Positions 18,691 to 49,685 of a DNA stretch of 64,000 bases are shown piece by piece. The position numbers and the translations under genes were made by a program. How positions within the stretch are numbered: position 1 is the stretch's first letter; every line of letters begins with the position of its first letter. Origin of the DNA: Camellia lanceoleosa (lineage: Eukaryota > Streptophyta > Magnoliopsida > Ericales > Theaceae); contig CM045767.1 in assembly GCA_025200525.1 (NCBI GenBank), forward strand, positions 10,275,273 to 10,339,272, written 5' to 3'. Under the pieces are notes generated by a model that searched no databases, was not told where the DNA came from, and worked only from the letters and a program-made list of their open reading frames with translations.

Positions 18691-18714
18691 CAATTTAACT
18701 GAATAGTTAAATAC

Positions 18715-20900: not shown

Positions 20901-20935
20901 ATACAAATGAAGGGAGTTGAGTTGGGTTCACTAAC

Positions 20936-21045
20936 CAATGTGTTGATAACAAAGAGTCAATTGCTTTTGCAGCTGGCTGTGTATGTTGCTGACCTTATGA
21001 GCCAAGCTGGAAAGCTCTTTCGCCTCTTTAGTCGATGCTATATAC
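20936..21045 (-). pseudogene. SEO exon 4
   Basis: 110 bp reading YIASTKEAKELSSLAHKVSN then IHSQLQKQLTLCYQHI. Acceptor GTGTCAG, donor GTTAGTG, phase 2 in and phase 1 out. No disabling change. Confidence 0.85.
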
Positions 21046-22103: not shown

Positions 22104-22447
22104 GGATAAATTACAAATACACCCCCTAAGGTTTGCTTAAAATACGAATTGTCCCTTATGGTTTGAAAAATTACAAATATCTCCCTGTCAAAATTTTTTA
22201 TTTAACAGAATTAATTGAAAAAGTGAAATTTCTAACTGTTCACCTATATAATAATAAAATTATTTGAATTATTAATTGAAATAAAATTTTAACATTCTTA
22301 AAAACTGTTAATTAACTCGATGATTTATTAATAAAAGGACCTATTTGTTATAAAATTAAAAACTTTAGGGCCATAATGTAATTTTTGAAACTATAGGAAT
22401 AATTTGTAATTTAAATAAATCTTAAAAGATGTTTTTATAATTTATCC
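22104..22447. mobile_element. Fold-back MITE in SEO intron 3
   Basis: Ends GGATAAATTACAAATACACC and, inverted, GGATAAATTATAAAAACATC. Interior TTAATTAACTCGATGATTTA and AAAAGGACCTATTTGTTATA match the 14259-14588 copy in the opposite orientation. No coding capacity. Confidence 0.7.
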
Positions 22448-22598
22448 AAAAAAAAAAGAGCCATTTTGATAGGCTAGTTGACAAACAAAGCCGGCCCAAT
22501 CATTTTCTTTTGAGCATGCGGTTCATCAAAACCACATAATATTTCGAGACAATTCAATAATTTTTCGACAATTCAATAAATTTTTGAGTAGAACATAC

Positions 22599-23047
22599 TT
22601 GTGTCTCATGCTAGTAATGTTCATGATTTGCGAAGCACATGTAACAATAATCCGAATCGTCCAGTAAACGGCAGAGGGGGTATGCGCAATGGCGGCTACC
22701 ATCTCCGGCATGGTGGAGGTGATGTACTGAGGTGGAAGCTCCTTGAACTCGACAATGCACTTGGACACATCCATAATGGCCTTGATGAGGTTAGTCAGTG
22801 CCTCAAACGTGGGTTTTAGAGAGTTGGCTTCCTTGAGCAAGTCTGGTGGTTGTTTAAACAGTGTCAAGTACTCGGCAAGCGGGTTGAATTGGTAATGCTG
22901 GTGAACCAGCCACAACTCGCCCCAGTTAATGGAAAATGCTGCTAAGGCTATCACAACCTTGACATCGCATGAGTAGCTAGAGAGTATGTTGAAGAGTGCT
23001 AGAGTAGTTGTGTGAGCATCTGAACCCCTTGAACACTTGCTAGAGAT
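22599..23047 (-). pseudogene. SEO exon 3
   Basis: 449 bp, open throughout, acceptor AACAG, donor GTATGT, ending in phase 2. It contains AHTTTLALFNILSSYS, ALAAFSINWGELWL, LKPTFEALTNLIKAIMDVSK and CIVEFKELPPQYI, the most diagnostic central SEO block. Confidence 0.9.
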
Positions 23048-23732
23048 CTGTTACGATTAAGCTTCAGATTACTTTGGGCAACAAATTAGAAGTTAGTGAG
23101 CGTTTGGGGTTGGTTCTGTTAATTATTTTTTTGTTTTTTTTTTCATTTTTAATGAACTTTTTATGAAAAATTTCAAAATACTCAACACTTTTGGATTTTA
23201 CTCAACTAAACGGACTGAAAATATAAAAAAAAAAAAATAGAAAAAAAAGTCTGGAAAGGACCACCAAAAAAAAAAAAAACCCAAAGAAATTTAACCTCCA
23301 TGGCTTTTTTATTTTAGTAATTTTTTTTTTTCATTTTTTTTTTTTTACTTTTTAAATTTGTCTACATAAGATAGATCTGAAACTGAAGATAAAAAATTTA
23401 AACAGTCACATTTTTAATTGTATTCCAAACTTCGCTTAGTATGAAAAAAAAACGTGGTGGTCCCTAAATTTCTCCACTCGAGAGACATGTATGGAATTTT
23501 TTAATTTTACTGTAATGCTTCTATTCATGGTTGAAGTATGACAAACAATACTATATAGATTGACCTTAAATAATAGTTGATCAAAAAATTTATAAATATA
23601 TGGATGTGTAACTTTTTTTTTTTTTTTTTTTGGGTAAAAAAATCCAGTAAAAATTGAACTTCACAAAAATTCTGATCTTTTGATAAATATTTATTACACT
23701 TCCTACTAATTGGTATTTTCTTAATAAAATAC

Positions 23733-24905: not shown

Positions 24906-25829
24906 GGACTTTTCTTAAGTGTGCCTCGCATATGGTATGCAAGGCACTTACACCCTTATATGTTGCATTTACACATTTGTATGTATTGGGTTATATCAAA
25001 TTATTTGAAAATTTACACATTGGTGACCTGCTAGGTAGGTCACTTTGCAGATAAATTAATAAAATAATATATTACACTTTCCAGGTTAATTAATAAAATA
25101 ATAAAAAATGTATAAGTTTTCACAAAAGCCGTATAGTTTCAAGAAAGGCGTAATGAATTTCAGAAAAAAGACGAATCGATTTACGAAAACTTACGCTTTT
25201 GTAAAAACTTACACATTTATATGAGTAGTTACGCCTTCTGTGAAATAATATACACCTTTTATGAACAGTTACTCCTTTTCCGAGTTGACTTACCAAAGGC
25301 GTAAACAAACGAAAACTTACACCTTTTGCTTAAGCTTATACCTTTTCGTGGAAGTGCTTAAATTTTATTTGAAAAGTTACTCTTTTGGTGTAAGAGTTTT
25401 TGGCATAACATTTATACTTTTGCTGAGAACTTACACCTTTTCTGGAAGCCCCCTTTAAAGCTATTTCGGAAGTCAATGGTGTAAGTATTTTCACGAGAAG
25501 GTGTAAGCCTAAACAAAAGGTGTAAAGTGGATGAATTTTTTTTGTCACAAAAGGTATAAGTGACTTCCGAAATAGCTTTAAGTTGGGCCTTCACAAATGG
25601 TGTAAGTTCGAGGAAAAAGTGTAAATCTTATGCCAAAAATTCTTACACAAAAGGAGTAACTTTTCAAAAATGGTGTAAATATTTTGACGGAAAGTATGAA
25701 GGATGTTCATAATCACAAAAGGAGTAACAAAGCGTTCATTTCAAAATGTTCGTAAACACAGAAGAAGTAACATATGTTCATTTCAAAGTAGTAAACACAA
25801 AAGGAGTAACATTTCGAAGTGTTCGTAAA

Positions 25830-26160
25830 CAAATTGAGACAACCACTGAACAAATCAAAGGGTTCGTGACCCGCGCTGACCACCCAAGCGTCGGTGGGCT
25901 CCGGTGGTGACAGGCTTCTGAGATCGGCACCTCCACGGCACCGCCGCCGCAAATGAAAGGTTTTTTGAAAGATTGGCTATCGATCTTGGTCTCTCTGTGT
26001 CGATGTCGGCCTATTCTCCGTCGATGTCGGTCTCTCTCTGTCGATCCCTGTTTATCTCATTTGGTCTCCATCGATCTTGGTCTGTCCGTGTCCATGTGGG
26101 TTCTTCTCTGTCGATCTCTGTCGATTTTGGTCCTTCTGTCGATCATTGTCCATGTAATTT
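25830..26160. repeat. Array core copy 1
   Basis: GC-richer block starting CAAATTGAGACAACCACTG, containing AAGCGTCGGTGGGCTCCGG and CCGCCGCCGCAAATGAAAGG. It ends in TCGAT-based units (TCTCTGTGTCGATGTCGG) that themselves repeat about every 20-30 bases. Confidence 0.8.
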
Positions 26161-26967
26161 AACTTTAGGAAGGAGTTATACCTTTTGTGAAAAAAAAAAT
26201 TCATCAAATTTACAATATTTGCCTAAGGTTACATGTTTTCGTGGAAGTGCTTAGACTATTTCTGAAAAGTTACTCCTTTTGTGTAGGAATTTTTGGCATA
26301 ACATTTATAGCTTATGTTCGAACTTACACCTTTTGTGGAAGCCCAACTTAAAGCTTTTTCGGAAGTCACTTATACCTTTTGTGAAAAAATAAATTCATCA
26401 AATTTACACCTTCTGCTTAAGCTTATACATTTTCGTGGAAGTGTTTATATTTTTTTGGAAAGTTACTCTTTTGTGAAATAATTTTTGTCTTAAGATTTAA
26501 AGTTTTTCTTCAAACTTACACATTTTGTGAAAGAGTATATAAGCACAAAAGTACAAATGTTATGCCCAAAATTCTTACACAGGAGGAGTAACTTTTTTAA
26601 AGATGGTGTAAGTATTTTCACGAGAAGGTGTAAACCTAACCAAAAGGTGTAAATTGGATGGAATTTTTTTTACAAAAGGTATAAGTGACTTACGAAATAG
26701 GTTTTAAGTTGGTCCTTCACAAATGGTGTAAATTCGAGGAAAAAGTGTAAATCTTATGCCAAAATTTGTTACACAAAAGGAGTAACTTTTGAAAAATAGT
26801 GTAAATATTTTGACGCAAAGTATGAAGGAGAAACATTTCAAAGTGTTCATAACCACAAAAGGAGTAACAAAGCGTCATTTAAAAAATGTTCGTAAACACA
26901 AGAGTAACATATGTTCATTTCTAAGTAGGAAACACAAAAGGAGTAACATTTGGAAGTGTTCATAAAC

Positions 26968-27295
26968 AAATTGGGACAACCACTGAACAAATCAAAGTGT
27001 TCGTGACCCCCGCTGACGACCCAAGCGTCGGTGGGCTCCGGTGCTCACAGGGTTCTGAGATCGGCAGCTCCACGGAACCGCCGCCGCAAATGAAAGGTTT
27101 TTTGAAAGATTGGCTATCGATCTTGGTCTCTCTGTGTCGATGTCGGCCTATTCTCCGTCGATGTCGGTCTCTCTCTGTCGATCCCTGTTTCTGTCGGTCT
27201 GTCTCCAGCGATCTTGGTCTGTCTCTCTCCATGTGGGTTCTTCTCTGTCGATCTCTGTCGATTTGGGTCCTTCTGTCGATCATTGTCCATCTAAT
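26968..27295. repeat. Array core copy 2
   Basis: Same block as copy 1 with scattered substitutions, starting CAAATTGGGACAACCACTG. It lies 1138 bases downstream of copy 1. Confidence 0.8.
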
Positions 27296-28487
27296 TTAAC
27301 TTTTCGGAAGTCAGTTATAGCTTTTGTGAAAAAAAAATTCATCAAATTTACAAAATTTGCTTAAGGTTAGACCTTTTCGTGGAAGTGCTTATACTATTTC
27401 TGAAAAGTTACTCCTTTTGTGTAGGAATTTGTGGCATAACATTTATAGCTTCTGTTCGAACTTACACCTTTTGTGGAAGCCCAACTTAAAGCTTTTCGGA
27501 AGTCAGTTATACCTTTTGTGCAAAAATAATTTCATCAAATTTATACCTTTTGCTTAAGCTTATACCTTTTCGTGGAAGTGCTTATATTTTTTTTGAAAAG
27601 TTACTCCTTTTCTGTAAGATTTTTTGGCATAACATTTATACATTTTCTTCGAAGTTACACTTTTGTGGAAGCCAAGTTAAAGCTTTTTCGGAAGTGACTT
27701 ATACCTTTTGTGGAAAAATAAATTCATCAAATTTACACCTTCTGTTTAAGCTTATACTTTTTCGTGGAAGTGCCTATATTTTTTTTTTGAAAAGTTATTC
27801 CTTTTGTGTAAGGTTTTTTGGCATAACATTTATACCTTTTCTTCGAACTTACACCTTTTCTGGAAACCCAACTTAAAGCTTTTTCGGAAGTCACTTATAC
27901 ACTTTGTGAAAAGTCCAAAAAGGAATTCATCAAATTTACACCTTCTGCTTAAGCTTATACCTTTTCGTCGAAGTGCTTAAATTTTTTTTTAAAAGTTACT
28001 CCATTTGTGAAATAATTTCTGTCATAAGATTTATACTTTTTCTTCAAACTTACACATTTTGTGAAAGAGTAATATAAGCCATAGTATAAATGTGATGCCA
28101 AAAATCTTACAGAAAAGGAGTAACTTATCAAAAATGGTGTAAGTATTTTCACGAGAAGGTGTAAGGCTAAACAAAAGGTGTAAATTGGATGAATTTTTTT
28201 TTTCACAAAAGGTATAAGTGACTTCCGAAATAGCTTTAAGTTGGGCCTTCACAAATGGTGTAAGTTCGAGGAAAAAGTGTAAATCTTATGCCAAAAATTC
28301 TTACACAAAAGGAGTAACTTTTCAAAAATGGTGTAAATATTTTGACGGAAAGTATGAAGGAAAAGTCCTAATCCCACAAAAGGAGTAACAAAGGGTTCAT
28401 TTCAAAATGTTCGTAAACACAGAAGGAGTAACATATGTTCATTTCAAAGTAGTAAACACAAAAGGAGTAACATTTCGAAGTGTTCAT

Positions 28488-29080
28488 AAACAAATTGAGA
28501 CAACCACTGAACAAATCAAAGGGTTCGTGACCCCCGCTGACCACCCAGGCGTCGGTGGGCTCCGGTGCTCGCAGGCTTCTGAGATCGGCACCTCCACGGC
28601 ACCGCCGCCGCAAATGAAAGGTTTTTTGAAAGATTGGCTATCGACCTTGGTCTCTCTGTGTCGATGTCGGCCTATTCTCCGTCGATGTCGGTCTCTCTCT
28701 GTCGATCCCTGTTTATCTCGCTGTGTCTCCAGCGAACTTGGTCTGTCCGTGTCCATGTGGGTTCTTCTCTGTCGATTTCGGTCCGTCTGTCGATCATTGT
28801 CCATCTAGGTCTCTATGTCCGTTGATCTCAGTCTATCTCTCTCTCTCTCTGTCCGTTGCTCTATATTAAAAACGGTTCTCTTTTACATTGACATACTTGG
28901 TTGGATTTGGACTCGGAGTCGCTATTCCAAGCCCTCCCAGAGTGGTCTTCTCTGAAACGGAGTTGTACTGGGAGAAAGGCGAAGCCCTCCGAAACGCCCT
29001 TCTCTCTGACATTGCCACAAGACAAAAACAGTGTGATTGGATTTTAGGAACTTACAGGTTTTTCGGGGAAGAAACGGACC
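28488..29080. repeat. Array core copy 3 with extension
   Basis: Core to about 28810, followed by an extra segment (CTCTATATTAAAAACGGTTC, GGACTCGGAGTCGCTATTCC, GGCGAAGCCCTCCGAAACGC) shared only with copy 5. It lies 1520 bases downstream of copy 2. Confidence 0.8.
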
Positions 29081-30370
29081 TTAGACGTTTTGCGAAGTTA
29101 CTTACATCTGTTTGTCGCATAAGATTTGTACTTTTTCTTCGAACTTACACCGTTTGTGAAAGCCCAACTTGAAAGGTTTTTCGGAAGTCACTTATACCTT
29201 TTGTGGAAAAAAAAATTTCTTCAAATTAACACAATTTGCTTAAGGTTACACCTTTTCGTGGAAATGCTTATACTATTTCTGAAAGGTTACACATTTTTTT
29301 GTACGAATTTATGGCATAACATTTATAGCTTATTTGCGAATTTACAGCTTTTGTGGAAGCCCAACTTAAAGCTTTTTCGGAAGTCTTTTATACCTTTTGT
29401 GAAAAAATAATTTCATCAAATGTTCACCTTTTGCTTAAGCTTATACCTTTTCGTGGAACTACTTATATTTTTTTTGAAAAGTTACTCTTTTTCTGTAAGA
29501 ATTTTTGGCATAAAATTTATACCTTTTCTTCGAACTTACACCTTTTGTGGAAGCTGACGTTAAAGCTTTTCGGAAGTAACTTATACGTTTTGTGGAAAAA
29601 TAAATTCGTCAAATTTACACCTTTTGGTGAAGCTTATACCTTTTTGTGGAAGTGCCTATATTTTTTTGGAAAAGTTACTCCTTTTGTGTAGGAATTTTTG
29701 GCATAACATTTATAGCTTATGTTCAAACTTACACCTTTTGTGGAAGCCCAACTTAAAGCTTTTTCGAAAGTCACTTATACCTTTTGTGAAAAAATAAATT
29801 CATCAAATTTACACCTTCTGCTTAAGCTTATACCTTTTCGTGGAAGTGCTTATATTTTTTTGGAAAGTTACTCCTTTTGTGAAATAATTTTTGTCATAAG
29901 ATTTACAGTTTTTCTTCAAACTTACACCTTTTGTGAAAGAGTATATAAGCACAAAAGTACAAATGTTATGCCCAAAATTCTTACACAGAACGAGTAACTT
30001 TTTTAAAAATGGTGTAAGTATTTTCACGAGAAGGTGTAAGCCTTACCAAAAGGTGTAAATTGGATGAAATTTTTTTCACAAAAGGTATAACTGACTTTCG
30101 AAATAGCTTTAAGTTGGGCCTTCAGAAATGGTGTAAGTTCGAGGAAAAAGTGTAAATCTTATGCCAAAAATTCTTACAGAAAAGGAGTAACTTTTCAAAA
30201 ATCGTAAAAATTGACGACAAGTCTGAAGGAGTAACACTTGAAAGTGTTCATAACCACAAAAGGAGTAACAAAGGGTCCATTTCAAAATGTTTGTAAACAC
30301 AGAAGGAGTAACATATGTTCATTTCTAAGTAGTACAAACACAAAAGGAGTAACATTTCGAAGTGTTCATA

Positions 30371-30690
30371 AACAAATTGAGACAACCCGAACAAATCAAA
30401 GGGTTCGTGACCGATTGACCCAAGCGTCGGTGGGCTCGGGTGCTCGTGCTCGCAGTTTCAGATCGGCACCTCCACGGCACCGCCGCAAATGAAAGGTTTT
30501 TGAAAGATTGTCTATCGATCTTGGTCTCTCTGTGTCGATGTCGGCCTATTCTCCGTCGATGTCGGTCTGTCTGAGTCCATGTGGGTTCTTCTCTGTCGAT
30601 TTCGGTCCTTCTGTCGATCATTGTCCATCTAGGTCTCTATGTCCGTTGATCTCAGTCTATCTCTCTCTCTCTCTCTCTGTCGATTTCAGT
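30371..30690. repeat. Array core copy 4, internally deleted
   Basis: Same core, shortened: the CCGCCGCCGC run is cut to CCGCCGC and one TCGATCCCTG unit is missing. It lies 1883 bases downstream of copy 3 and has no CTCTATATTA extension. Confidence 0.75.
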
Positions 30691-32464
30691 TCTTCAAGTT
30701 CACGCACTTACGCCTGCTTTCTAAAGCGAACTTTAAAGGTTTTTCTAAGTCACTTATACCTGTTGTGGAAAAAAAAATTCATGAAATTAACACAATTTGC
30801 TTAAGGTTACACCTTTTCGTGGAAATGGTTATACTATCTCTGAAAAGTTACCTCTATTGTGTTGGAATTTATGGCATAACATTTATAGCTTATTTTCGAA
30901 CTTACACCTTTTGTGGAAGCCCAACTTAAAGCGTTGTCGGAAGTGACTTATACCTTTTGTGAAAAATTTCATCAAATGTACACCTTTTGCTTAAGGTTAT
31001 ACCTTTTCGTGGAACTGTTTATATTTTTTTGGAAAAGTTACTCCTTTTCTGTACGAATGTTTGGCATAAGATTTATACCTTTTCTTCCAACTTACACCTT
31101 TTGTGGAGGCTCAAGTTAAAGCTTTTCCGAAAGTAACTTATACCTTTTGTGGAAAAATAAATGGATCAAATTTACACCTTTTGGTGAAGCTTATACCATT
31201 TCTTGGAAGTGCCTATATTTTGTTTGAAAAGTTACTCCTTTTGTGTAAGAATTTTTGGCATAACATTTATAGCTTTTCTTCGAACTTACACCTTTTGTGG
31301 AAGCTGAAGTTAAAAGTTTTTTGGAAGTCACTTATACCTTTTGTGAAAAAATAATTTCATTAAATGTACACCTTTTGCTTAAGCTTATACCTTTTCGTGG
31401 AACTGCTTATATTTTTTTTGAAAAGTTACTCATTTTCTGTACGAATTTTTGGCATAACATTTATACCTTTTCTTCGAACTTACACCTTTTGTGGAAGCTC
31501 AAGTTAAAGCTTATTCGGAAGTAACTTATACCTTTTGTGGAAAAATAAATTCATCAAATTTACACCTTTAGGTGAAGCTTATACCTTTTCGTGGAAGTGC
31601 CTATATTTTGTTTGAACAGTTACTCCTTTTGTGTAAGAATTTTTGGCATAACATTTATAGCTTTTCTTGAACTTACACCTTTTGTGAAAATTTGAAGTTA
31701 AAGGTTTTTCGAAGTCACTTATACCTTTTGTGAAAAAATAATTTCATTAAATGCACACCTTTTGCTTAAGCTTATACCCTTTCGTGGAACTGCTTATATT
31801 TTTTTGAAAAGTTACTCATTTTCTGTACGAATTTTTGGCATAACATTTATACCTTTTCTTCGAACTTACACCTTTTGTGGAAGCTCAAGTTAAAGCTTAT
31901 TCGGAAGTAACTTATACCTTTTGTGGAAAAATAAATTCATCAAATTTACACCTTTAGGTGAAGCTTATACCTTTTCGTGGAAGTGCCTATATTTTTTTTG
32001 AAAAGTTACTCCTTCTGTGTAATAATTTTTGTCATAAGCTGTATACTTTTTCTTCAAACTTACACCTTTTGTGAAAGAGTGTATAAGCACAATAGTATAA
32101 ATGTTATGCCAAAAATTCTTACATAAGAGGAGTAACTTTTCAAAAATGGTGTAAGTATTTTCATGAAAAGGTGTAAGCTTAAGCTGAAGGTGTAAAGGAA
32201 TGAAATTTATTTTTCAGAATAGGTATAAGTGACTTCCGAAATAGCTTTAAGTTGGGCCTTCACAAATAGTGTAAGTTCAAGGAAAAAGTGTAAATCTTAT
32301 GCCAGAAATTGTTACACAAAAGGAGAAACATTTCCAAGTGTTCCTAACCACAAAAGGAGTAACAAAGGGTTCATTTCAAAATGTTCGTAAACACAGAAGG
32401 AGTAACATATGTTCGTTTCTAAGTAGTAAACACAAAAGGAGTAACATTTCGAAGTGTTCGTAAA

Positions 32465-33030
32465 CAAATTGAGACAACCAGTGAACAAATCAAAGGGTTC
32501 GTGACCCCCGCTGACCACCCAAGCGTCGGTGGGCTCCGGTGCTCATGAGCCCGAGATCGGCACCTCCACCGCCGCCAAGAAATGAAAGTTTTTTTGAAAG
32601 TTTGGCTATCGATCTTGGTCTCTCTGTGTCGATGTCGGTCTCTCTCTGTCGATCCCTGTTTATCGCGCTGTGTCTCCAGCGATCTTGGTCTGTCCGTGTC
32701 CATGTGGGTTCTTCTCTGTCGATTTCGGTCCTCCTGTCGATCAGTGTCCATCTAGGTCTCTATGTCCGTTGATCTCAGTCTATCTCTCTCTCTCTCTCTC
32801 TGTCCGTTGCTCTATATTAGAAACGGTTCTCTTTTACATTGACATACTTGGTTGGATTTGGACTCGGAGTCGCTATTCCAAGCCCTCCCAGACTCGTCGT
32901 CTCTGAAAAGGAGTTGTACTGGTAGAAAGGCGAAGCCCTCCGAAACGCCCTTCTCTCTCACATTGCCACAAGACAAAAAACAGTGTGATTGGATTTTAGG
33001 AACTTAACAGGTTTTCGGGGGGGAAAAACG
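32465..33030. repeat. Array core copy 5 with extension
   Basis: Core followed by the same extension as copy 3 (ACGGTTCTCTTTTACATTGA to CAGTGTGATTGGATTTTAGG). It lies 2094 bases downstream of copy 4 and is the last core before the array decays. Confidence 0.8.
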
Positions 33031-33300
33031 GAACTTAGACGTTTTATGGAAAATAACCTTTTCATAAAGTTTGTTAAAAGAAAGAAATTATTTGAGAAAA
33101 TGTATAAACTTTGCAAATATGGTGTATGTTTGTCCGAAGATGGTGTAAATTACCATAGAAAAGATGTAAGTTTTGTTTTTCACTAAAGGTGTAACTTGAA
33201 ATAAGAAGTGTAAATTTTATGAAAAAGGTATTTCCAAAAAATGTGTAATTTTTCAAGAAGTTGTAAATATTTCAGAGAGATGGTGTAAATTTTAAGGAAA

Positions 33301-33600
33301 GCTGTAAAATTGATTTAATGGTTGTAAACTTTGTGAGTTTTTGCAAAAGCTATATGTTCCCAAAGAAGACCAATTATCGGTTTGAATGTTTCCTTTTTAC
33401 GAAAGATATAAGTTCCCAAAGTTAGACCAATCCGAATAAATGTGAATGCTTCGTTTTTAGAAAAGATATAAGTTCCAAGGTGTAACTTTTTTATTAAGAA
33501 AATTAATTTAAAGATATAAGTTCCAAGGTGTAACTTTTATGAACAAAAATAATTTATAAATGATGTCAGTTTTCATTAAAAGGTGTAAGTTGTCAGAACA
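33301..33600. other. Degenerate tail of the repeat array
   Basis: Loose GGTGTAAGT, AAGATATAAGTTCC and GTGTAACTTTT units, including a local duplication of AAGATATAAGTTCCAAGGTG at about 33462 and 33512. No gene. Confidence 0.5.
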
Positions 33601-34990
33601 AGTATAAAAAATGCCGAAGTGTTTAGAAGAGGTGTAAGTTCGTCGGCTCCGTCTGTCTCTCTTCCATCTCGGACCTCTCTCTTTGTTTGTCTTTCTCCGC
33701 CTGCCTCTCCGTTGTTCCATTTCAGAGTCAGAGGGTTTTACAGAGAAAAAATTTTAGGCCGAGCTTAAGTTGTTGGGAAGGCTAGCCATGGAAGTGGATG
33801 CATAAATACTTTTTGAAGTTGATTTTTGTCGGTGGAGGACAACCGCAAGGGTTAATCGAGCACCACCGTCGGTTCGTCTGATCCGGTTGGTATTTCCTTT
33901 ATTTCGTGCTGCTACATTATCTGCCTCCTTGTTTGTCTTGTATCATTCGCATAAACCTTCACAACCAACCCGAAATCGACACCATCGGAATCGTTTCAGA
34001 CTCCATTTTCAGATTTTGTGCTATTCGAATAGGAACTCTTCCTCTCGCTAACGAAATGGACCCAATAGGAACTGCTTCAGTTTTTGTATTTTCTCCTTTC
34101 GAATAGGAAGTCTTCCTCTGCTATCCATCTTGCAAGTTGAACATAGGTATCATAGTAGTTAGCAACAAGCATAAAAGGTGTTCTCCATTTACATGGCGAA
34201 CTTCTTACGTAGGGTTATATATAACGAAAGAAGACTTGAACAAAAATTTGTGTAACGTTGGGACGGGAAAAACGATTTTTTTTTTTTTTCGAGTAGCCAA
34301 AATAGGGAAAATAAGAAACTCGATAAACAAACAATGACTAATCTTGTTTCCGCAACGGGTAGCACACTCGGTTGAATTCTGCTTTCAATTTTGTACTACT
34401 CGCGGATTTTATATTGCTGGAACTTATGTTTAGAAACAATCTGTGTTACACGGACTCTTGAAAATAGATCAAATACCTGTGTCGGACACGTGAGAGTCGG
34501 ACAAGTGTATGGGATATGTGTCGGATACTTTTCAACCGACAGTTTTTATATAATTCATATAGGACTTTTCTTAAGTGTGCAAATTATTGTGAAATTACTA
34601 TAAATGTGATTTCGACACTCTGAGTTACATGTAGTACCATTTTATGTCACATATTAGACTAAAAATATGATATTTTTTCCCCACACCGCGTACCATTGAA
34701 TGTAGGGTTAAGATTTAATTAGTCCGACACACATACATACATACACCTGCAGTACTCGAGTCCGTGTAACACAAGAACAACTCTTTCTTTCAAGGTCTTG
34801 AATTTCATGCATAGTTGACGGTATTCAACTTAAAACATAGGACAGCGAATTGAGAGAGTTGAAATGAGGATGACGCTTTCGAAATTTTGTAGAGAGCTAT
34901 TCGTTTCCACACCCAGTTCTGAATCAATACTTGAAGCGTTCACTTTTATGGCTAGCCTTTCCAACAACTTAAGCGGCCAGAGACGATGGC
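33600..34990. repeat. Segment bounded by an imperfect inverted coding-like repeat
   Basis: CTTAAGTTGTTGGGAAGGCT at about 33768 and its inverse near 34950-34976 (AGCCTTTCCAACAACTTAAG) are the best parts of arms about 70 bp long. In frame both arms read LKLL-x-RLA. The right arm lies in a minus-strand open frame of about 65 codons (35027-34830) starting MSDSGGEKVLVFRHRLWPLK, which I cannot assign. The interior has a leader-like CT-rich stretch (33640-33720) and no convincing gene. It may be a small transposon or inverted duplication between the array and the retrotransposon. Confidence 0.4.
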
Positions 34991-35129
34991 GGAAAACCAA
35001 TACCTTCTCCCCACCTGAGTCGGACAACCGTAAGCTTTTAAAAACCCTTTTGTTTCATGTTTTGAAATCACTTGCCCTTTTACCACACAAACCCTACCGA
35101 TCTTCTATTAACCCTCTCTTTCTCGCTAC

Positions 35130-38100
35130 TTGCTATCAATGGATCCTTCCTCGCTAAAAGTGCTCGCTGGCGACCATATCAGCCCTACCATGGCTTTGAA
35201 GAAATGTATTGATGAAGAAATCGCCAAGCTAACAACTGGTGGGTCAAGCGCCATAGATGGACGTCTCTTCGTCCCTCGCTACAGCAACCGACAAGAGTAC
35301 GTCCTAGGTCCCATCTTTCGAGAGGCCCCTGACCAACTTCCAGCTTTATACCCCCGTTTGGAGGATCACTTTCTTCTCTACGAAGGAGGGCTTGACTGGA
35401 GCAATTGGAGAATGACCCGGCCTCATCGTTGCTGGCCGACATTGAGAACCGAATGGGAGGAATGGTATGACAGGGTTGTGCCTGCGAGGGAAGATGACCT
35501 ACAGGAGCTCTGCATCCTCGACGCTCTTCATCTCTCCAGGTTCATCATTCCTAAGGACCCCTTTTTAATTCCTACTGCTTTATGTTTTTGGAATATGGCT
35601 TTCAATTTCTTCCAATTTCGATGCGGCATGATGGCCCCTACCGTTCTTGATATTTGCCATCTTTTAGGGCTTTCACCCCATGGCTCTCCTTTTACTCCCA
35701 ACTACCCAGACCTCCCTGTCAAATTTTCCTTTCTAGCCTTAAACTCTTCTTACAGTGATTTCGTAAAGGCTGAAAATAAAAGGAAAGGCCCTGTGAGAGA
35801 CAGAGAACTGTTTTCCTTTATTTTATACTGGTTGTGCAAGTTTTTTTTTTGCACTTCATCTCAGAGGATTATGCCTGAGTTCGCTCCACTTGCGAAGGCA
35901 CTTATCTTGAAAAAACACCTAACTCTTGCCCCTTATCTATTAGGTCATGTCTATAGAGCTTGCTCCCAATTTTGCGAATAATCTCTTGACGTTAACCAAG
36001 GAGGTCCCCTCTGGGTGCTCCAACTCTGGCTCTTCGCCTATTTCACTAACCTACATCCCAAATGTCTAAGATTCCTTGTTCAGGATCCTAGTACTTATGG
36101 GGAAAAGTATGCTAGGATTGCTTTCTATCCCGCCTGCTGCTTATTACCTTACTTTCTTTCACAAACTCCCTATTTCTCTATCTGCCTCCTTTTTTTGTCC
36201 TTTCGAAGCTAATAAAGGACCAACCTGGCTGCAGACTTTTCTGGCTGATAAAGAGTGCTCCACCTCACCTTATAAAGATATGTGGGCCTCTGTACTGCTA
36301 CCAAGGGAATTATTCATTGGCACTTTGAACCCTCGAGCCTATAAATGCATATCTGAGGTGTATTGCCCTTCTCAGTTCGCCAGACAATTTGGATTCACTC
36401 AAGGGATACATGTTCCTCTTTGTAGTCTCTCGAATGTCCATCTTACTGCTAGAGACTTGAGAATATCCAAATCCAAGCTAGAAACGGCAATACTCAAACT
36501 GCTGAAGGAATTGAATGAGTTCTAATTTGTCCCATTTCTTCCATCTGGCTTAGTTTTGAAAAGATTCCAAAATTTGTGGACAGCCAATATGGAAGTGCGC
36601 CTAGCTGTACACCCTCATGACTTGCTAATAGGGTTGGGAGTGCCTTCGAAGGCCAAGTCAGCAACAGCTGAGAACATTCCCCCTCTTCCTGAAGCTGCCA
36701 CAACTGCTCCTGCAACTTCGCCCCCTCCAGCTAGAGTTACTAGAGTTGCTTCGAAGAAGGATAAGCATTTTCAGATTCCCTTTTTTTTTTTCTTTTGGAT
36801 CTTTTGTTTGTTTCCTTTATACTCATGTTCTTTGGTGCATGGTCCTCGCAAGAAGAATCCCCTAAGAGAGCTGAAACATTAGCTACCCTCAAAAAGAAAC
36901 AACAACAGAAACAGAAAAGGAAGCTAATCCTCCCTCCTGAGGAATCTGAATCTTTGGCAGAAGAAAGAGAGGTTGAGCAAGAGCCAGAAGTGCCTTTGCA
37001 AAGAACAAAGAGACAAAAGATGGCTGTCTTCACTTCTGATATAGTCGAACATCCTACTCTCGAGGCAACAACCACAATAATGGGGAAAGAACTTACTCAA
37101 GAATCAACCCCAAGTTGAAGAAGGGAGGTTGAAAAGGAGCCGAGTATCTGTGCCAAGAAGGAAGAGAAAAATGACTGCTTCACATCGACTTGGTTGAAGA
37201 CCCTATTCATGAAGCAGCTACCAAGGCAGTAGAGCAGGAACATTCCAAAGCTATGATTGTCTTTGAGAGAGCTGAAAAGAGACGGCAGCAACAATTTCTA
37301 AGAGATGAAGCTCACGATGTATTACAAAGGAAAGCGCAAGAAGGCAATAGACTGCTGAACATTATTCCCTTTGCAGCTCTCCCACTATTGCCAACATCTC
37401 TGAAACAAGTAATATCTTTCATGCTTCTACTATTTTGCCTTATTAAATTCTGACACTAGAGCTTGACCTTACGCTTCTTCTTTTTTGCAGCAACAACCAT
37501 TGAAGCTATACTTCCAATGAGAACTCCCTCAATTTCAATTGAAGTTGATCGAATCAGAATGTGAAAGCCATTCAAATAATACTTCCACTTCCTAGGCCCA
37601 CATTTCATATACCACCTTTGAGTCCTAGCATCCCTTTAACTCTTTCTTTTGGTTTGACTTCATATCTTCCTCACTTGACCCTTGACACTTCTCTTTCGAG
37701 CTTTGCTCCTCCTCCTTCTTCCAAGGAAATTCCAACTGCTACTCTATCTATGATGGCAGTTGATTCCTCTATTGAGGGTGCTGGTAACTTTCCAACCCGT
37801 GGTTCATCACCTTTACCTAGCTCCAGCCCTTCTTCACTTGATTCTTTGGTAGCTAAGACCATAGAGACTGCCAAAGATGCTCCATCCATTTCTTCTATCC
37901 CCATGCAGTCCTCTGTGCCTTCCACCACAACTCTCTCCGCGCCTCTCATGTCTATGGATGAGGTTGATGTCTTCGAAGCCAGACTAGCTAGTCTCTTCGA
38001 CATACCCTCTACCTCTCCAACATTGAATGTTGAAGCTGAGCCATTAGTTTTGGTTGACTCCTTGCTGGAAATTTTTGAGAGCTCTTCTTCTTCCAGTAGC

Positions 38101-38571
38101 AAGCCTTCCGTACCTTCGATAGACCTAGACACATGCCTGGAACTGTTGATTTCTTTTTCGAGGATTCCCTTCGAGGCTCTACAAAGGCCTATAATCAGAA
38201 ATGGGTTCTTCCAATGCTGCAAAATTGCTGAGCAGTCTAGCATGAATATTTCAAGTCATCTATCTCAGGCAGCAGCTACTGTCGACTTCTACATCAACAT
38301 TTGCCATGCTACCAAAGCTGCGGAGGAGAAATTGGCTAGAGACCAGAGTTTTGTTTTCCAAGTGCACACCGAAATGTCAAATCTGAAAGAACAACACTCC
38401 TCTACCTCCCACTTTCGAGTCCAGTTGCTGGAGAAGAAAGCTCAACTTGAAGAGGAGCTGGCTGCAGTGAATCAAGCCTTAGTCCGAACTGATACCAAAT
38501 TGCAAATCACCAACCAAGGACTGGCTGATCGAAAGGAAGAGATGGCTGTGGCTATTCAATTGGTTTCATGA
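35130..38571 (+). pseudogene. Extra ORF of the retrotransposon: plant mobile domain (PMD) protein, antisense to gag-pol
   Basis: It starts MDPSSLKVLAGDHISP and carries the PMD signature: FCxWNMAFNFF-type core, MMAPTVLDICHLLGLSPHG, then after one in-frame TAA (35979-35981) GPLWVLQLWLFAYFTNLHP. After a frameshift near 36.17 kb come GPTWLQTFLADKECS and EVYCPSQFARQFGFTQGI. Another stop lies at 36523. The 3' part is charged and coiled-coil-like (EKKAQLEEELAAVNQALV near the end, stop at 38571). An intron is visible at 37409-37490. PMDs are shared by transposon-derived plant proteins and retroelement extra ORFs and are implicated in silencing. At least two stops and two frame changes make it non-coding now. 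The 37561-38571 stretch is the longest intact piece. Confidence 0.8.
37409..37490 (+). other. Intron in the antisense PMD ORF
   Basis: GTAATATCTTTC donor after the codon CAA, and a pyrimidine-rich acceptor CTTCTTCTTTTTTGCAG. It is 82 bp, a normal plant intron length. The presence of a plus-strand intron implies this ORF was transcribed from its own promoter, opposite to the genomic retroelement RNA, in which it could not be spliced. Confidence 0.6.
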
Positions 38572-38739: not shown

Positions 38740-39063
38740 CTAAATGGTTGGAAAATAAGGCTTCAAATACCTGCCATTAATCTTTTTGGGGTGTATATAT
38801 CCATTCAAATTTCTCAAATGGTATGCTCCAAAAGGCAGAACTCTATGAATTTGATATGGTCCTTCCCAGTTAGGTGACCATTTGCCAAACTTATGGCTTT
38901 TAATTCCTATTGGGAGTATTGTTTTCCATACCAAATCACCTTCATCAAAGCCAATGTGTTTAACTTTCTTATTGTAATTTTTGGCTGCTTTCTTCTTTTG
39001 CAAGATAATGCTATTTAATGCCAAAATTCTGGCTTCATCTATGCCTTCTAACTCCAAGCACAT
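38740..39063 (-). pseudogene. Integrase C-terminal part (GPY/F module)
   Basis: 107 codons ending the pol polyprotein. It contains KKVKHIGFDEGDLVWKTILP and then GKWSPNWEGPYQIHRVLPFG, the GPY/F-type chromatin/DNA-contact module seen in many Ty3/Gypsy integrases. It ends KPYFPTI with a natural stop, 168 bases from the convergent end of the plus-strand PMD ORF. It is out of frame with the catalytic core upstream, so pol is frameshifted near 39.07 kb. Confidence 0.85.
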
Positions 39064-39084
39064 ACTTTGATGGTCTTGCCAGAT

Positions 39085-39594
39085 CTAACGATTTTGGCAT
39101 CTTACCCTTAAAGATTTAACATTAATCTCCACAGGTAACACTGCATCATGCCCATATACTAAGGCATAAGGAGTGACTCCTGTGCTTGACCTTGGGGAAG
39201 TTCTATAAGCCCATAAAACATCCAATAACAGGTTATGCCAATCCCTAGGATTATCTTCCATAACCTTTTGTATTCTCTTTTTCAAGGACTTATTGGATGA
39301 TTCAGCTTGACCATTGGCTTGTGCATAATAGGGTGTGGAATTGACAAGGCTAATTCCAAATTCTACCACAAAGGACTTTACCATCTTCCCATCGAACACA
39401 GTCCCATTATCCACAGTTACGGTCTGTGGGATACCAAATCTATGAATTAGATTCTTAATAAATCCAATAACCTCAGTCTGGCCTACAGCCTTGTATGGCT
39501 TAGCTTCAACCCACTTAGTGAAGTAATCAGTGGCTACTAGAATGAAACAATGATGTTTCGAAGAAGGTGAGTGTATTTTTCCCATTATATCCAT
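39085..39594 (-). pseudogene. Integrase catalytic core (DD35E)
   Basis: 169 codons starting at the MDIMG segment. The catalytic acids are Asp23 in VATDYFTKWVEA, Asp62 in VDNGTVF and Glu98 in ANGQAESSNK, with exactly 35 residues between the last two, the retroviral-type spacing. This enzyme inserts the cDNA into the host genome. All three residues are intact although flanking frames are broken. Confidence 0.9.
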
Positions 39595-39597
39595 GGC

Positions 39598-39897
39598 CTA
39601 TCCTCTGAATGGCCAATGTTTCACTACTGCATGTAGGTCAGTTATGGGCACATGCCTTATCGTGCCATGCTTTTGACATGCCTGGCAACCCTTTGCATAC
39701 TCTATGCAGTCTTTAAGGATAATTGACCAATAGTAGGAATGCCTTCGAAGTAACCATCTCATTTTCACCCCAAGCTGATGAGCACCACAGATGCCTTCAT
39801 GAACCTCAGCCATAGCTGTTAATTCTTCTTTTGGACCTAAACATTCCAGCAACAAACCATCTCCTCCCCTTTTGTAGAGAGCATTACCATATATCAT
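39598..39897 (-). pseudogene. Integrase zinc-binding (HHCC) domain
   Basis: The zinc-binding pattern is seen as VHEGICGAHQLG followed by CIEYAKGCQACQKHG. It runs to HWPFRG and a TAG stop at 39600-39598. Related pol proteins have Trp here just before the core, so a TGG to TAG change is the simplest explanation and the core continues in the same frame after it. Confidence 0.85.
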
Positions 39898-40050
39898 GTA
39901 TTACATAGACTGCAACTTGATTTTCCTGCTGGCTTTCGAAGATGGACTAGCCAAGTACTGCATTATTGGATGCCTCCAATCTTGCTCTTGTAAGTCATTA
40001 TGATTAACTTCCAAAACCACATTCCTTTTATTCAAAGGTGGTATCAATTT

Positions 40051-40950
40051 CTAATATGTTGTTTGGCTTATGTCCCTTTGGGCATTATCCCTTCTCTTGA
40101 AGTTCGAAGCTTTCTGAGCCACATCATTAGCTCTATGATTCAAGAATTTGGAAACATGAGTTACATTTGCTATTTGAAATTGAGAAAGCAGATGTAATGC
40201 AATAACATAGTATGGTAAAATGTTTATGCTTTGACACTTGAAAATCCCTTTCACTTGGTTAACCACCAATTGAGAATCTCCAAATACGTCAACTGCATGA
40301 ACTTGTAATCCAATAAGAATTTCTAGTCTCACTATTAAGGCTTCATATTCAGCCTGGTTATTGGAACAGGTAGCTTTATCCACTCTGAAACCATGTGTGG
40401 TTTCTACCCCTTGTGGAGATTTAATTACAATACCAATTCCAATTAAGCCATTGGCTTTCGATCCATCGAACCACATCTGCCATGGCTCAACACTAGCCAT
40501 GCCAAGTTCCATTATCTCTTGGTTCTCTGTTTGAGATGGATGGTTTGCCAAAAAATTGGCCAGAACTTGCCCTTTTACTGCCCTTTGAGGGACATATTCT
40601 AGATGAAATTCTGATAGGGCTAGTATCTGCTTGCCAATTCTTTCCCTCAACATAGGTCTAGATAACATGTACTTAACCAAATCTGTGGTTGCAATTACCA
40701 AGACAGTTGTAGGTAAAAGATAATATCTTAATTTCATTGCAGCGAAATACAAAGCAAGACACAGCTTTTCTACAGCTGAATATTTACATTCACAAGAATT
40801 TAAAAACCTACTAAGGTAATAAACAGCTTGCTCCTTGCCTTCTTCATTGTCTTGGGCCAAGAAAGCTCCCAATGAATCTTCTGCTGCAGCTATGTACAAC
40901 TTCAAGGGCTTATTACCCTTTGGTGGCATCAGCACTGGAGGGTTGGCCAA
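40051..40950 (-). pseudogene. RNase H plus second RNase H-like domain of pol
   Basis: 299 codons. The first part (KLYIAAAEDSLGAFLAQD, SAVEKLCLALYFA) is the usual RT-linked RNase H. The second part from about residue 158 has MWFDGSKANGLIGIGIVI, NNQAEYEALI, VFGDSQLVVNQVKG and HRANDVA, a complete D-E-D-type archaeal-like RNase H. Two tandem RNase H domains are diagnostic of the Tat clade. Confidence 0.9.
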
Positions 40951-41432
40951 GTAGGCTTTGATACCTTCGAAAGTAATTTGATGCTTTGCTGTCCATACAA
41001 TTCCTCTTCATCTTTCAGCCTTAACAAGGAAGAAAATACTTTAGTTTTCCCTGCAGTGTTAGAAATGAACCTTCGAAGAAAGTTAACCTGTCCAAGGAAC
41101 CTTTGTAATTCTTTCTTACTTGATGGAGGCCTGGCTTCAATGATGGCTTTGGGTTTATTCTGATCAATCTGTATTCCTTTCTTGTGCACTACATAACCCA
41201 AGAAGTTTCCAGATGATACACCAAAAGCACATTTAAGAGGATTGAGTTTAAACTTGAACTTCCTCATTCTTTCAAAAGCTACTTCTAAATGAAACAGATA
41301 CTCCTCCATGGACTGGGATTTCACTACAATGTCATCAATATAACACTCTAAATACCCTCCAATGAGGTCATGAAAGATAGTGTTCATAGCTCTCTGATAT
41401 GTAGCTCTAGCATTCTTCAGGCCAAATGACAT
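40929..41432 (-). pseudogene. Reverse transcriptase, C-terminal half (catalytic YIDD)
   Basis: Begins just after a TAG stop at 41441-41439 and is in the same frame as the upstream RT half. It has MSFGLKNARATYQRAMN (usually MPFGLKNA), then the catalytic YIDD at about residues 31-34, the HLEVAFERMRKFKFKLNPLK block, and FLGYVVHKKGIQ. It is frameshifted near 40940 into the RNase H frame. Confidence 0.9.
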
Positions 41433-41438
41433 TTTAAC

Positions 41439-42209
41439 CTATTCGAAGGTGCCAATATTTCCAGGACATCTGAATGCTGTCTTGTGGATGTCTTCCTCTG
41501 CAATGCAAATTTGGTTATAACCAAAGTGTCCATCCATCATTGATAAAACTTGATACCCTGTTGAACTGTCTACCAACAGATCCACTATAGGCATAGGGTA
41601 CTCATCTTTTGGAGTTGCTAGATTTAAGTTTCTGAAGTCAATGCATATCCTTATTTTACCATTCTTCTTGACTACAAGCACAATATTAGATAGCCATTCA
41701 ACATACCTGGCTGTCCTAATAAAGCCTGCCTTGAGTAGTCTAAGAATCTCTTCCTTAACTTTCTGAATTACTTCTGGACTCATTCTTCTTGGTTTCTGCT
41801 TGTATGGCTTGAAATTAGGCTTCACAGGGAGCCTATGTTCCACTAATGACCTATCCAATCTTGGTAGTTTATTATAAGACCATGCAAAGCAATCTTTATA
41901 TTTCTTTAGAACAACCAATAACTGGTCCCTGTCCAGATCATTCAAACAAGCACTTATATGGGTGGGTTGTTGCATAGAACCTTCCCCTAAATTTACTTCT
42001 TCTAAGGGGTCTTGTGTTTGAGAACTTATTGAAGCTTCTTCCTTGGTTTCTTCTGGCTTCGAAGTAACCTTCTCGCTCTGTTCTGCTCCTAGGTCCTTTA
42101 GTTCAACAAACTTTGCCCTCCTTCTCATAGACAAAATGTGTCCATAGGGCATCCTCTTCCTGTATCTCCTGGACTTTTGTTTCAATGACCAATGCACAGT
42201 ATTTACCAA
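41439..42209 (-). pseudogene. Reverse transcriptase, N-terminal half
   Basis: 256 codons ending GNIGTFE then TAG. It contains KYKDCFAWSYNKLPRLDRSL, the HRLPVKPNFKPYKQKPRRMS block, VKKNGKIRICIDFRNLN (fingers) and DLLVDSSTGYQVLSMMDGHF (first catalytic Asp region). The stop sits where TFEW is usual, a TGG to TAG change. Confidence 0.9.
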
Positions 42210-42254
42210 GGGTCAAAACTCTGACCTGTTGCTGCTCCTGTTTGCAGCTAATTA

Positions 42255-44434: not shown

Positions 44435-45199
44435 CTAGTTAGCAACATGCATCTGCACATTGATTTCTTCCAATTCTGTCAAGGACAAGTTCTGGAAGTC
44501 TGACGTAATGACATTGGCTACCGGCTCTCCAACCTCTAGAAATGGATTACTGTCGATCCCCATGGCCTTTTTTGTTTTGGTTGGGAACTTCAAAGTTCCT
44601 TTCCGAATTTGTTCTTGGATCCTGTCTCGAAAAACAATGCAGTTTTTAGTCGAGTGAAACCAAGAGTTATGCCATTTACAATAAACTTTTCCTTTAAGTT
44701 CATCTGGAGATGGAAATTTTACTCCTTTAGGTAACTTAAGGAAGTTGGCAGCAAGCAAATGATCAAAAATGTCATCTGCTTTGGTTAAATCGAAAGAATA
44801 CTTTCTGTGAAAGTCTTTCTTTTTAAACTGCTGGTCAATCGTTGTATCCTTATGAATTAATGCTTCACAGATTACTGGTTCTTTGCCCACAATCTTTGCT
44901 GCATCGATCTCATAATTAGGATCTCTATAATATGTCTTGTACGACGCATTATTTCGATGTTGTTCCTCTTCTAATAATGCTTCATATCGAGACACCTTAT
45001 AGGTTAGTTCTACCAAATCTCTGAATTCAGTTGAGTCAAACTTCTTTCGAAGCCTGAATTCTAAGCCATTTTGAGCTAATCTTACGAATTCTGGCTCTGG
45101 CAGGATGACTCTACATTTATTTCGAGCCCTTTTAAATCTGGCAATAAACTGAGTGGCCTTTTCTTCAAGCCTTTGACTCAATCTTGCCAAGTCTGCCAT
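44435..45199 (-). pseudogene. gag, capsid C-terminal part and zinc knuckle
   Basis: 254 codons starting MADLARLSQRLEEKATQFIA then RFKRARNKC, the typical retrotransposon gag capsid core. Further on KGVKFPSPDELKGKVYCKWH leads into the CKWH-x-H-x-NC knuckle. It ends EEINVQMHVAN. Gag packages element RNA into virus-like particles in the cytoplasm. Confidence 0.85.
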
Positions 45200-45256
45200 G
45201 GAAACCTCTGGCTCCGATTAGAAGAATTGGGCATGAAATGCCTCTTCCATTTGTTG

Positions 45257-46040: not shown

Positions 46041-46045
46041 CCATT

Positions 46046-48888: not shown

Positions 48889-48899
48889 AAAATATATAT

Positions 48900-49685
48900 T
48901 GGCTTTTTGGCTTTCGAAGGGTAATTTTGTAAATGCGAGCGTGCCAGCAAGGATCAATCAGTCCTTACAGAAATTATAATTGCCAACCAATTATTAGACG
49001 ATTGTGTTGTAGTTCTTTCAGCCTCAATGAAGAGGACTTTTACTGGTGGCTTGACTTAGGAGAAATTATGCAAAATAACAGTTAAATGACGAACAATTGA
49101 AGTATTTCATTAAAATGAAAACTTACAATGATCCAAACTCAGCCTTGAAGAGGTTTACAGCAACAATCTACTTGAAACTACTCCTATGAACGAAGTGCAG
49201 TGCAAGAATTTAAAGTGCAGGAATGTAAAGAACATGTATTTAAAGTGCAGGAAATGTAAAGACTGGAAATGTAAAACTGGAAAAGAAAATATGAAGTAAA
49301 TGACTGGTTTCTTGGATTTGAGTCTGGGGCTTTTTTCTGGGGGCTTTCCTGCTATTTATACTTGTCAAGGATGACCTTCGAACTGCACTTCAAACCGTCG
49401 AACTGCTCCTCCATGATCGCTGATCATGTTGCCTCATAAGTAGTTCCACTACACCATCACTTGCAGTTAGGCTTCCCTCCTATATTTGAATTTGAATGTG
49501 AGTAACCGTTGAAGCCACGTCACCTTGCATCTCTTTACTGATCCAATGCTACTCGGATCACATGAGAACCAATATTAACGGCCACGTGTACGATCATGAC
49601 CGAAGACTCGACTAGTCTTCCTACATTACCCTTACTCTGCCACGTGTTGAACTGTGATTAAATTTTACAAAATATGTAGCCAACA
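48900..49685 (-). repeat. 5' LTR of the Tat-lineage element
   Basis: In element orientation it starts TGTTGGCTAC (49685) and ends GCCAAAAAGCCA (48900), giving TG...CA with short inverted ends, 786 bp, 11 bases from the primer site. A TATAAATAG box lies inside (49360-49352). The exact ends are inferred because no second LTR copy is available for comparison. Confidence 0.6.
49352..49360 (-). promoter_or_regulatory. TATA box in the 5' LTR
   Basis: TATAAATAG on the minus strand, a near-perfect plant TATA box, placed in the middle of the LTR as expected for the U3/R boundary. Transcription would run toward gag. Confidence 0.7.

What the first reader, a model, noticed from the sequence alone, without database searches (positions are those of the whole stretch)
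25080..33300. Higher-order palindromic satellite-like array of unknown class
Nested order is visible at three scales: ~15-base TTACACCTTTTGTG motifs, ~200-bp units, and blocks of 1.1-2.1 kb. In each block one orientation runs to a short centre (about 26530, 28060, 29935, 32070) and then continues inverted to the next GC-rich core. Ordinary satellites are head-to-tail. Regularly alternating inversion with dedicated cores is unusual and would give strong cruciforms or long hairpin RNAs.
Basis: seen in the sequence. Interest (0 to 1): 0.75.

Follow-up and report, generated by a model that had tools for sequence, protein, structure and literature searches.

The report
Palindromic repeat array in plant retrotransposon
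A plant chromosome carries five head-to-tail copies of a 1-2 kb repeat block, each with a built-in mirror-image stretch, next to a decayed retrotransposon and most likely part of its repeat-prone non-coding tail; it is an unusually elaborate case of something already known.

Summary
The structure is real. Between 25.2 and 33.05 kb lie five blocks: a run of ~193-bp units in one direction (about 1.3, 2, 4, 4.6, 7 units), a short centre, ~1.4 units inverted, a 43-bp-repeat zone, and a GC/CT-rich core. The shortest module resembles TTAYWCCTTTTGTG (197 matrix hits, commonest spacing 19 bp). It is not regularly alternating inversion. In a monomer tree the forward and inverted units used fall on two sides of one branch, and position-specific subtypes recur across blocks. 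So the inversion is old, probably single, and the composite block was duplicated head-to-tail.

Beside the array is a decayed minus-strand Ty3/gypsy element with a second RNase H between RNase H and integrase (the Ogre/Retand mark). An antisense plant-mobile-domain (PMD) gene converges on the end of pol, about 170 bp away. The array lies upstream of that gene, where such elements are known to carry tandem arrays. No 3' LTR was found, so membership is inferred. Zone-core sequence recurs in seven other public contigs.

Best reading: the hypervariable pol-3'LTR region of an Ogre/Retand-type element, probably without essential function. Motif-binding and hairpin-RNA roles remain open, testable rivals. 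New variant of a known kind.

The parts
25080..25311 (.). degenerate left margin of the array; motifs in both orientations
   Evidence: 7 motif hits against a mean of 0.25, max 1, in 20 shuffles; weak unit match 25205-25282, E 9e-4
25205..26166 (+). block 0 (truncated): F 25205-25475, R 25476-25694, 43-bp zone to 25830, short core 25831-26166
   Evidence: nhmmer units; module table
26167..27300 (+). block 1: F x2, centre ~26540, R 26541-26820, zone to 26975, short core 26976-27300
27301..29059 (+). block 2: F x4, centre ~28075, R 28076-28352, zone to 28490, long core 28491-29059
29060..30737 (+). block 3: F x4.6, centre ~29946, R 29947-30206, zone to 30375, short core 30376-30737
30738..33045 (+). 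block 4: F x7 (388-bp dimer period), centre ~32082, R 32083-32376, zone to 32465, long core 32466-33045
33060..33650 (-). degenerate R-orientation motif array between the blocks and the gene leader
   Evidence: 12 motif hits against a mean of 1.0, max 3, in 20 shuffles; unit match 33177-33362, E 7e-12
33643..35138 (+). CT-rich stretch and presumed leader/intron of the antisense PMD gene (inferred)
   Evidence: read; homology of the CT stretch to the cores tested and not supported
35139..38571 (+). decayed PMD gene, antisense to pol; the 340-aa ORF 37549-38571 is presumed to be its C-terminal part
   Evidence: PF10536 E 2.3e-16; P0001 (68%) and P0008 (85%) align from their residue 1 at 35139, P0012 has pieces at 35139, 36840 and 37321; frame change near 36134; ORF 35112-35981 ends in a stop inside the conserved stretch
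38740..42212 (-). gypsy pol remains: RT 42.2-40.9 kb, RNase H then second RNase H (RVT_3) 41.0-40.05 kb, integrase 39.6-39.09 kb, C-terminal ORF ending at 38740
   Evidence: Pfam; ORF list; translation
44438..45217 (-). gag-like ORF (weak)
   Evidence: PF03732 E 0.015, below the curated cut-off
48890..49685 (-). presumed 5' LTR (starts TGTTGGCTAC on the minus strand) next to a primer-site-like TGGCACGCCCGGTGGGAC and a gag-like start; ends assigned by eye
   Evidence: sequence reading; no second copy in the window

Best explanation
The array is the repeat-expanded non-coding region between the antisense PMD gene and the lost 3' end of a decayed Ty3/gypsy retrotransposon of the Tat clade (Ogre/Retand type), in minus orientation. 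Steps: (1) a ~19-22-bp motif was multiplied and fixed into a ~193-bp, seven-motif unit (inferred from spacing); (2) an inversion, probably one, made a palindromic junction, and the inverted part came to be followed by the 43-bp zone and a GC/CT-rich core (supported as a shared arrangement of the five blocks); (3) the composite block was duplicated head-to-tail to five copies, two of them with a ~200-250-bp longer core (supported); (4) the forward run expanded locally, latterly as a 388-bp dimer in block 4 (supported). Steps 1-2 probably came from template switching or snap-back during reverse transcription, and steps 3-4 from unequal recombination (inferred). I think it most likely has no essential function. 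At most it is a motif-dense upstream region of the antisense gene.
For: Element: RT, RNase H, second RNase H and integrase in that order on the minus strand. A second RNase H between RNase H and integrase marks Ogre and Retand, and PMD occurs in 57% of Ogre elements (PMC6317226 passages). The PMD-side + strand ORF ends at 38571 and the last pol ORF at 38740, so the genes converge about 170 bp apart, which suggests one element. In the Retand survey the pol-3'LTR region has antisense ORFs in all cases and tandem arrays in about half (PMC11963269, parts 1-3 of 5 read). Interlaced short arrays inside Ogre are described (PMC7004042 passages). Array continuity towards the PMD gene: R-orientation motifs run to 33.64 kb and one unit match there has E 7e-12. 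History: F and R monomers fall on two sides of a branch (support 95/96; 94% of 200 bootstraps); first-F (4 blocks), last-F (3 of 4 full blocks) and outer-R (5 blocks) monomers cluster by position across blocks.
Against: No 3' LTR or target-site duplication was found; I looked for no polypurine tract with a tool. The presumed LTR has no second copy anywhere in the window. The pol-3'LTR stretch would be about 13.7 kb or more, against 2.9-6.6 kb in the Retand survey, whose units are 8-100 bp. The paper on interlaced arrays in Ogre reports them in the same orientation, not inverted. PMD gene and array are not shown together on any second copy of the element, because the host genome could not be searched. 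An exact 18-bp direct repeat at 24906 and 34562 could mean that the array and leader are a separate insertion. Homogenisation within each orientation could also contribute to the F/R split, and 14 of 27 inner branches of the tree are weak.
Confidence: 0.55

Rival explanations
1. The array is an independent repeat (a satellite fragment or a non-autonomous DNA transposon with subterminal repeats) that only happens to lie beside the PMD/gypsy element.
For: No LTR on the left. Exact 18-bp direct repeats at 24906 and 34562; a mean of 0.08 matches in 100 shuffles even with 3 mismatches allowed, none with two. Seven other contigs carry zone-core sequence with no visible link to a polyprotein (contigs of 628-926 bp, too short to tell). 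PMD also occurs in MULEs (PMC9289625 passages; PMC5418596 passages).
Against: The R-type motifs run to within about 10 bp of the CT-rich leader, in the same orientation as the block R arms. No matching inverted termini were seen when 24.4-39.0 kb was compared with the window. The 34-bp inverted repeat 33763/34941 lies outside the blocks.
Confidence: 0.25
2. The array is a binding platform: an element-encoded DNA-binding protein (perhaps the PMD product) binds the TTAYWCC motif clusters and regulates the antisense gene or counters silencing, as VANC proteins do on VANDAL transposons.
For: 197 motif hits, locally in one orientation, 19 bp apart in the commonest case. In 17 forward monomers motif columns vary less than spacer columns (0.072 against 0.100; 8 of 191 circular shifts as extreme). 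Motifs persist in the degenerate flanks. VANC21 binds short motifs arrayed in one orientation at high density in non-coding tandem repeats (PMC5735166 passages).
Against: The conservation signal is weak and may reflect the age of the 19-bp module. No binding by a gypsy PMD protein was tested here, and the gene in this window is broken.
Confidence: 0.12
3. The palindromes are transcribed into imperfect hairpin RNAs that feed small-RNA silencing of the element or of PMD genes.
For: Each of the four junctions folded forms a strong hairpin (MFE about twice the shuffle mean). In tea, the only named source among the PMD relatives (3 of 12 hits named, all Camellia sinensis), 175 PHAS loci lie at PMD genes, in a study with 476 21-nt and 43 24-nt PHAS loci (PMC10673657 passages).
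Against: The passages seen place those loci in genes and suggest miRNA triggers for several; they do not invoke hairpins. The arms are 69-80% identical with exact runs of at most 21 bp. No transcript or small-RNA data were at hand.
Confidence: 0.08

Closest known systems
Hypervariable pol-3'LTR (3' UTR) tandem arrays of Tat-clade (Ogre/Retand) Ty3/gypsy retrotransposons
   Same: position downstream of pol and beyond an antisense extra ORF; family-specific repeats with variable copy number; known source of satellites
   Different: composite units of 1-2.3 kb with a built-in inversion and core; stretch of about 13.7 kb or more; no 3' LTR found
FabTR-58 complex arrays in Lathyrus sativus Ogre elements
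   Same: short arrays interlaced at fixed intervals with other sequence inside an Ogre element
   Different: FabTR-58 arrays are in one orientation with 86-bp units; here each block holds both orientations of a 193-bp unit
VANC-binding motif arrays of VANDAL transposons
   Same: high-density, same-orientation short motifs in non-coding tandem repeats near a TE-encoded gene
   Different: no VANC gene or MULE transposase identified here; different motif; binding untested
Chio1/2 centromeric satellites of Chionographis japonica
   Same: mixture of forward and reverse arrays with hairpin-forming symmetry
   Different: 23-28-bp monomers in megabase centromere units; here an 8-kb array with cores between the arms
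MULEs with multiple (tandem) terminal inverted repeats
   Same: tandem duplication of a module containing inverted-repeat sequence (abstract)
   Different: no MULE transposase, terminal inverted repeats or target duplication found here

Membership tests
Tat-clade Ty3/gypsy (Ogre/Retand) | gypsy order RT-RNaseH-integrase | tested here: met
   Pfam order on the minus strand, pieces in several ORFs
Tat-clade Ty3/gypsy (Ogre/Retand) | second RNase H between RNase H and integrase | tested here: met
   RVT_3 E 2e-14 after RT_RNaseH within one ORF, before rve; criterion
Tat-clade Ty3/gypsy (Ogre/Retand) | RT phylogeny placing it in Ogre or Retand | not tested
   no reference RT set at hand
Tat-clade Ty3/gypsy (Ogre/Retand) | extra ORF beyond pol (PMD in 57% of Ogre; antisense ORFs in Retand) | tested here: met
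   antisense PMD, PF10536 E 2.3e-16, + strand ORF converging with pol about 170 bp apart
Tat-clade Ty3/gypsy (Ogre/Retand) | two LTRs and a 4-5-bp target-site duplication | tested here: not met
   no second copy of the presumed LTR in 64 kb; the element is decayed or truncated
pol-3'LTR hypervariable array | tandem array of three or more units on the far side of pol | tested here: met
pol-3'LTR hypervariable array | array enclosed between pol and the 3' LTR of the same element | tested here: inconclusive
   3' LTR not found; array adjoins only the antisense gene
satellite DNA | long homogenised arrays at many loci | not testable with these tools
   host genome search unanswered (7 calls); one 8-kb array in the window
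MULE / DNA transposon | terminal inverted repeats, target duplication, own transposase | tested here: not met
   no MULE transposase family among 20 of the 36 listed ORFs; no matching inverted termini in the comparisons made
VANC-type binding array | a protein that binds the motif | not testable with these tools
   no binding data

The most novel reading that the evidence does not exclude
A plant LTR retrotransposon has built, upstream of its antisense PMD gene, a modular cis-element: about 200 copies of a 14-bp motif arranged as mirror-image clusters around repeated cores, serving as an element-specific recognition platform (anti-silencing or autoregulatory) that grows by whole-block duplication. 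This would be a retrotransposon counterpart of the VANDAL-VANC system.
Probability: 0.08. Interest if true: 0.8.

Novelty: new variant of a known kind. Interest (0 to 1): 0.4.

Why it matters
It is a readable record of how a complex repeat arises inside or beside a retrotransposon: motif, monomer, inversion, composite block, local expansion, several steps ordered by the monomer tree. If other copies confirm membership, it extends the known 3'-region arrays of Tat elements to inverted higher-order units and shows how palindromic satellites could be seeded. The motif clusters beside a PMD gene also offer a direct test of what PMD proteins of retrotransposons do.

Tried and rejected
Regularly alternating inversion: not supported by the monomer tree. 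Block cores as duplicates of the PMD gene's CT-rich leader: a first alignment looked good (1 of 200 two-base-block shuffles as high). With dinucleotide shuffles 15 to 197 of 300 reached the observed score, depending on the core, and for four of five cores at least five of seven other CT-rich stretches of the window scored higher. Dropped. Core as coding or captured gene: a 48-aa and an 83-aa frame of the long core and a 108-aa core frame gave no Pfam family at a meaningful E-value (best 0.23); the 48-aa frame gave only weak PDB matches (best E 0.061) and no protein homologue (where length limits exclude long proteins). Not supported. The seven ENA relatives align to the cores in shifting frames, which fits non-coding DNA. 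MULE or Helitron identity: no ends recognised. Relatives in other collections: none in plasmids for 27301-29100; no match for one 22-base core pattern in viral or genome contigs; a 15-base motif pattern hits 45 viral stretches once each, which I take as chance. 3' LTR: negative. Motif selection: weak only. Rfam (gathering threshold) and tRNA scans gave nothing in the array. The sigma-70 scan of the leader was at background and is not meaningful for a plant.

Papers: PMC11963269 parts 1-3 of 5; passages of PMC6317226, PMC7004042, PMC9289625, PMC5735166, PMC10264360, PMC5418596, PMC10673657; outline and abstract of PMC3310237; all others only as search listings. I saw no description of an inverted higher-order array in a Tat element in those listings and passages; most subscription papers are not held, and the 2009 paper on hypervariable 3' UTRs and the 2011 paper on extra ORFs are known to me only as citations.

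Full report
What is there. The 64-kb window is plant DNA: sieve-element-occlusion gene pieces lie on both sides of the region (SEO_N/SEO_C), and a snoR137 match lies at 13.6 kb. Self-comparison confirms a dense repeat region at 25.1-33.3 kb. Against 20 dinucleotide shuffles the best direct and inverted self-matches are 2170 and 447 bits versus maxima of 34.6 and 39.2.

Anatomy. A profile built from six block-4 units finds 34 matches in the window at E up to 0.1 (20 forward, 14 reverse), all between 25.2 and 33.62 kb. They resolve into five blocks: forward units (about 1.3, 2, 4, 4.6 and 7), a centre, about 1.4 units in reverse, a zone of ~43-bp repeats, and a core. R arms are 82.3-98.6% identical between blocks and cores 81.5-94.8%. 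Cores of blocks 2 and 4 share a ~200-250-bp extension that is absent from 0, 1 and 3. The forward-unit consensus holds seven copies of a TTAYWCCTTTT-like motif. Across the region 197 motif hits are found, spaced most often by 19 bp (59 of 182 same-strand neighbour pairs), then 22 and 35 bp (21 each).

History. The tree holds 30 monomers: 19 F (of 20 forward matches) and 11 R (10 from the blocks and one degenerate copy at 33.18 kb; three weak reverse matches were left out, and one reverse match, 28045-28230, was trimmed to start at 28084). F and R are separated by one branch (95/96; 94% of 200 bootstrap trees); 14 of 27 inner branches are weak. First-F units of blocks 1-4 group (99/96), last-F units of blocks 1-3 group (99/98; block 4's last unit does not join them), outer-R units of all five blocks group (97/97), and inner-R units of blocks 1 and 3 group (98/98). 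In block 4, units 4 and 6 group (96/89); unit 2 joins them, and 5 joins 7, below the starring threshold. This fits the 388-bp dimer period. The simplest account is one inversion before the block duplications, then head-to-tail duplication, then local F expansion; homogenisation within each orientation may have sharpened the split. So 'alternating inversion' is a consequence of a palindromic unit. Arms at the junctions are 69-80% identical with longest exact runs of 15-21 bp. A perfect cruciform is not expected, though RNA of the four junctions tested would fold strongly.

Surroundings. On the minus strand at 38.7-45.2 kb lie decayed gypsy genes: gag (weak, E 0.015), RT, RNase H, a second RNase H, integrase, and a C-terminal ORF ending at 38740. 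A presumed 5' LTR lies at about 48.9-49.7 kb (by eye). On the plus strand a broken PMD gene starts at 35139; a + strand ORF ending at 38571 is presumed to be its end. Its relatives include Camellia sinensis proteins: P0003 76% in the search's own alignment and 68-74% by tblastn, P0008 85% over the first 72 residues (12 of 516 candidates passed, 10 of them with PF10536). Twenty of 36 listed ORFs were scanned against Pfam. The blocks lie upstream of this gene. A degenerate R-orientation motif array bridges them to the CT-rich stretch at 33.64 kb (12 hits against a shuffle mean of 1.0; one unit match at E 7e-12).

Identity. A second RNase H between RNase H and integrase is the mark of Ogre and Retand; PMD is found in 57% of Ogre and Transposase_28 in 23% of Retand elements (PMC6317226 passages). 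In the Retand survey the pol-3'LTR region holds antisense ORFs in all cases and tandem arrays in about half (PMC11963269). Ogre elements can hold interlaced arrays and seed satellites (PMC7004042 passages). The window fits this plan up to the left edge, where no 3' LTR is found. I therefore claim membership as likely, not shown. Whether Ogre or Retand is open.

Recurrence. A 139-aa reading frame over zone and core, used as a probe, finds seven ORFs on short ENA contigs (7 of 24 candidates; 50-87% identity). All seven align from the zone into the core, and two run well into the long-core extension (P0017, P0019). So the module is a recurrent family, but those contigs are too short to show a retrotransposon link, and their species is not given.

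Function. Three possibilities remain. By-product of replication and recombination is the default and is what the Ogre literature proposes in general terms. A binding platform is suggested by motif density and by the weakly lower variability of motif columns (8 of 191 shifts), with VANDAL-VANC as the working model. Hairpin-derived small RNA is suggested by the fold and by 175 PHAS loci at PMD genes in tea, though that paper suggests miRNA triggers for several of them. None of these functions was tested here.

Limits. The host genome search did not complete, so copy number, element ends and the array's presence in sister copies are unknown. Block boundaries are mine and good to perhaps 10-20 bp. 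LTR limits were set by eye. The nearness to Camellia rests on transposon proteins only.

Noticed in passing
window 24906-24923 and 34562-34579: Exact 18-bp direct repeat GGACTTTTCTTAAGTGTG on either side of the array and part of the PMD leader; mean 0.08 matches in 100 shuffles with 3 mismatches allowed. Unexplained (target duplication, filler DNA or chance).
   Followed up: partly
window 33763-33796 and 34941-34974: 34-bp inverted repeat, 91% identical, about 1.1 kb apart, inside the presumed leader of the PMD gene.
   Followed up: partly
window ~46045-48430: Apparent nested insertion inside the gypsy gag region, by eye, with possible short target repeats.
   Followed up: no
window 24924-24950: Near-perfect 12-bp-arm hairpin GTGCCTCGCATA/TATGCAAGGCAC just left of the array, read by eye.
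   Followed up: no
window 58380-58766, 49922-50268, 61247-61576, 8484-8948: Self-palindromic stretches (75-84% identical to their own reverse complement), possibly MITE-like.
   Followed up: no
window 17504-23050 and 53285-53665: Sieve element occlusion gene pieces (SEO_N, SEO_C) on both sides of the transposon region, minus strand.
   Followed up: no
window ~28860-29059 and ~32810-33045: Long-core extension whose reverse strand in block 2 starts with an ATG and reads 48 codons without a stop; no homologue found.
   Followed up: partly
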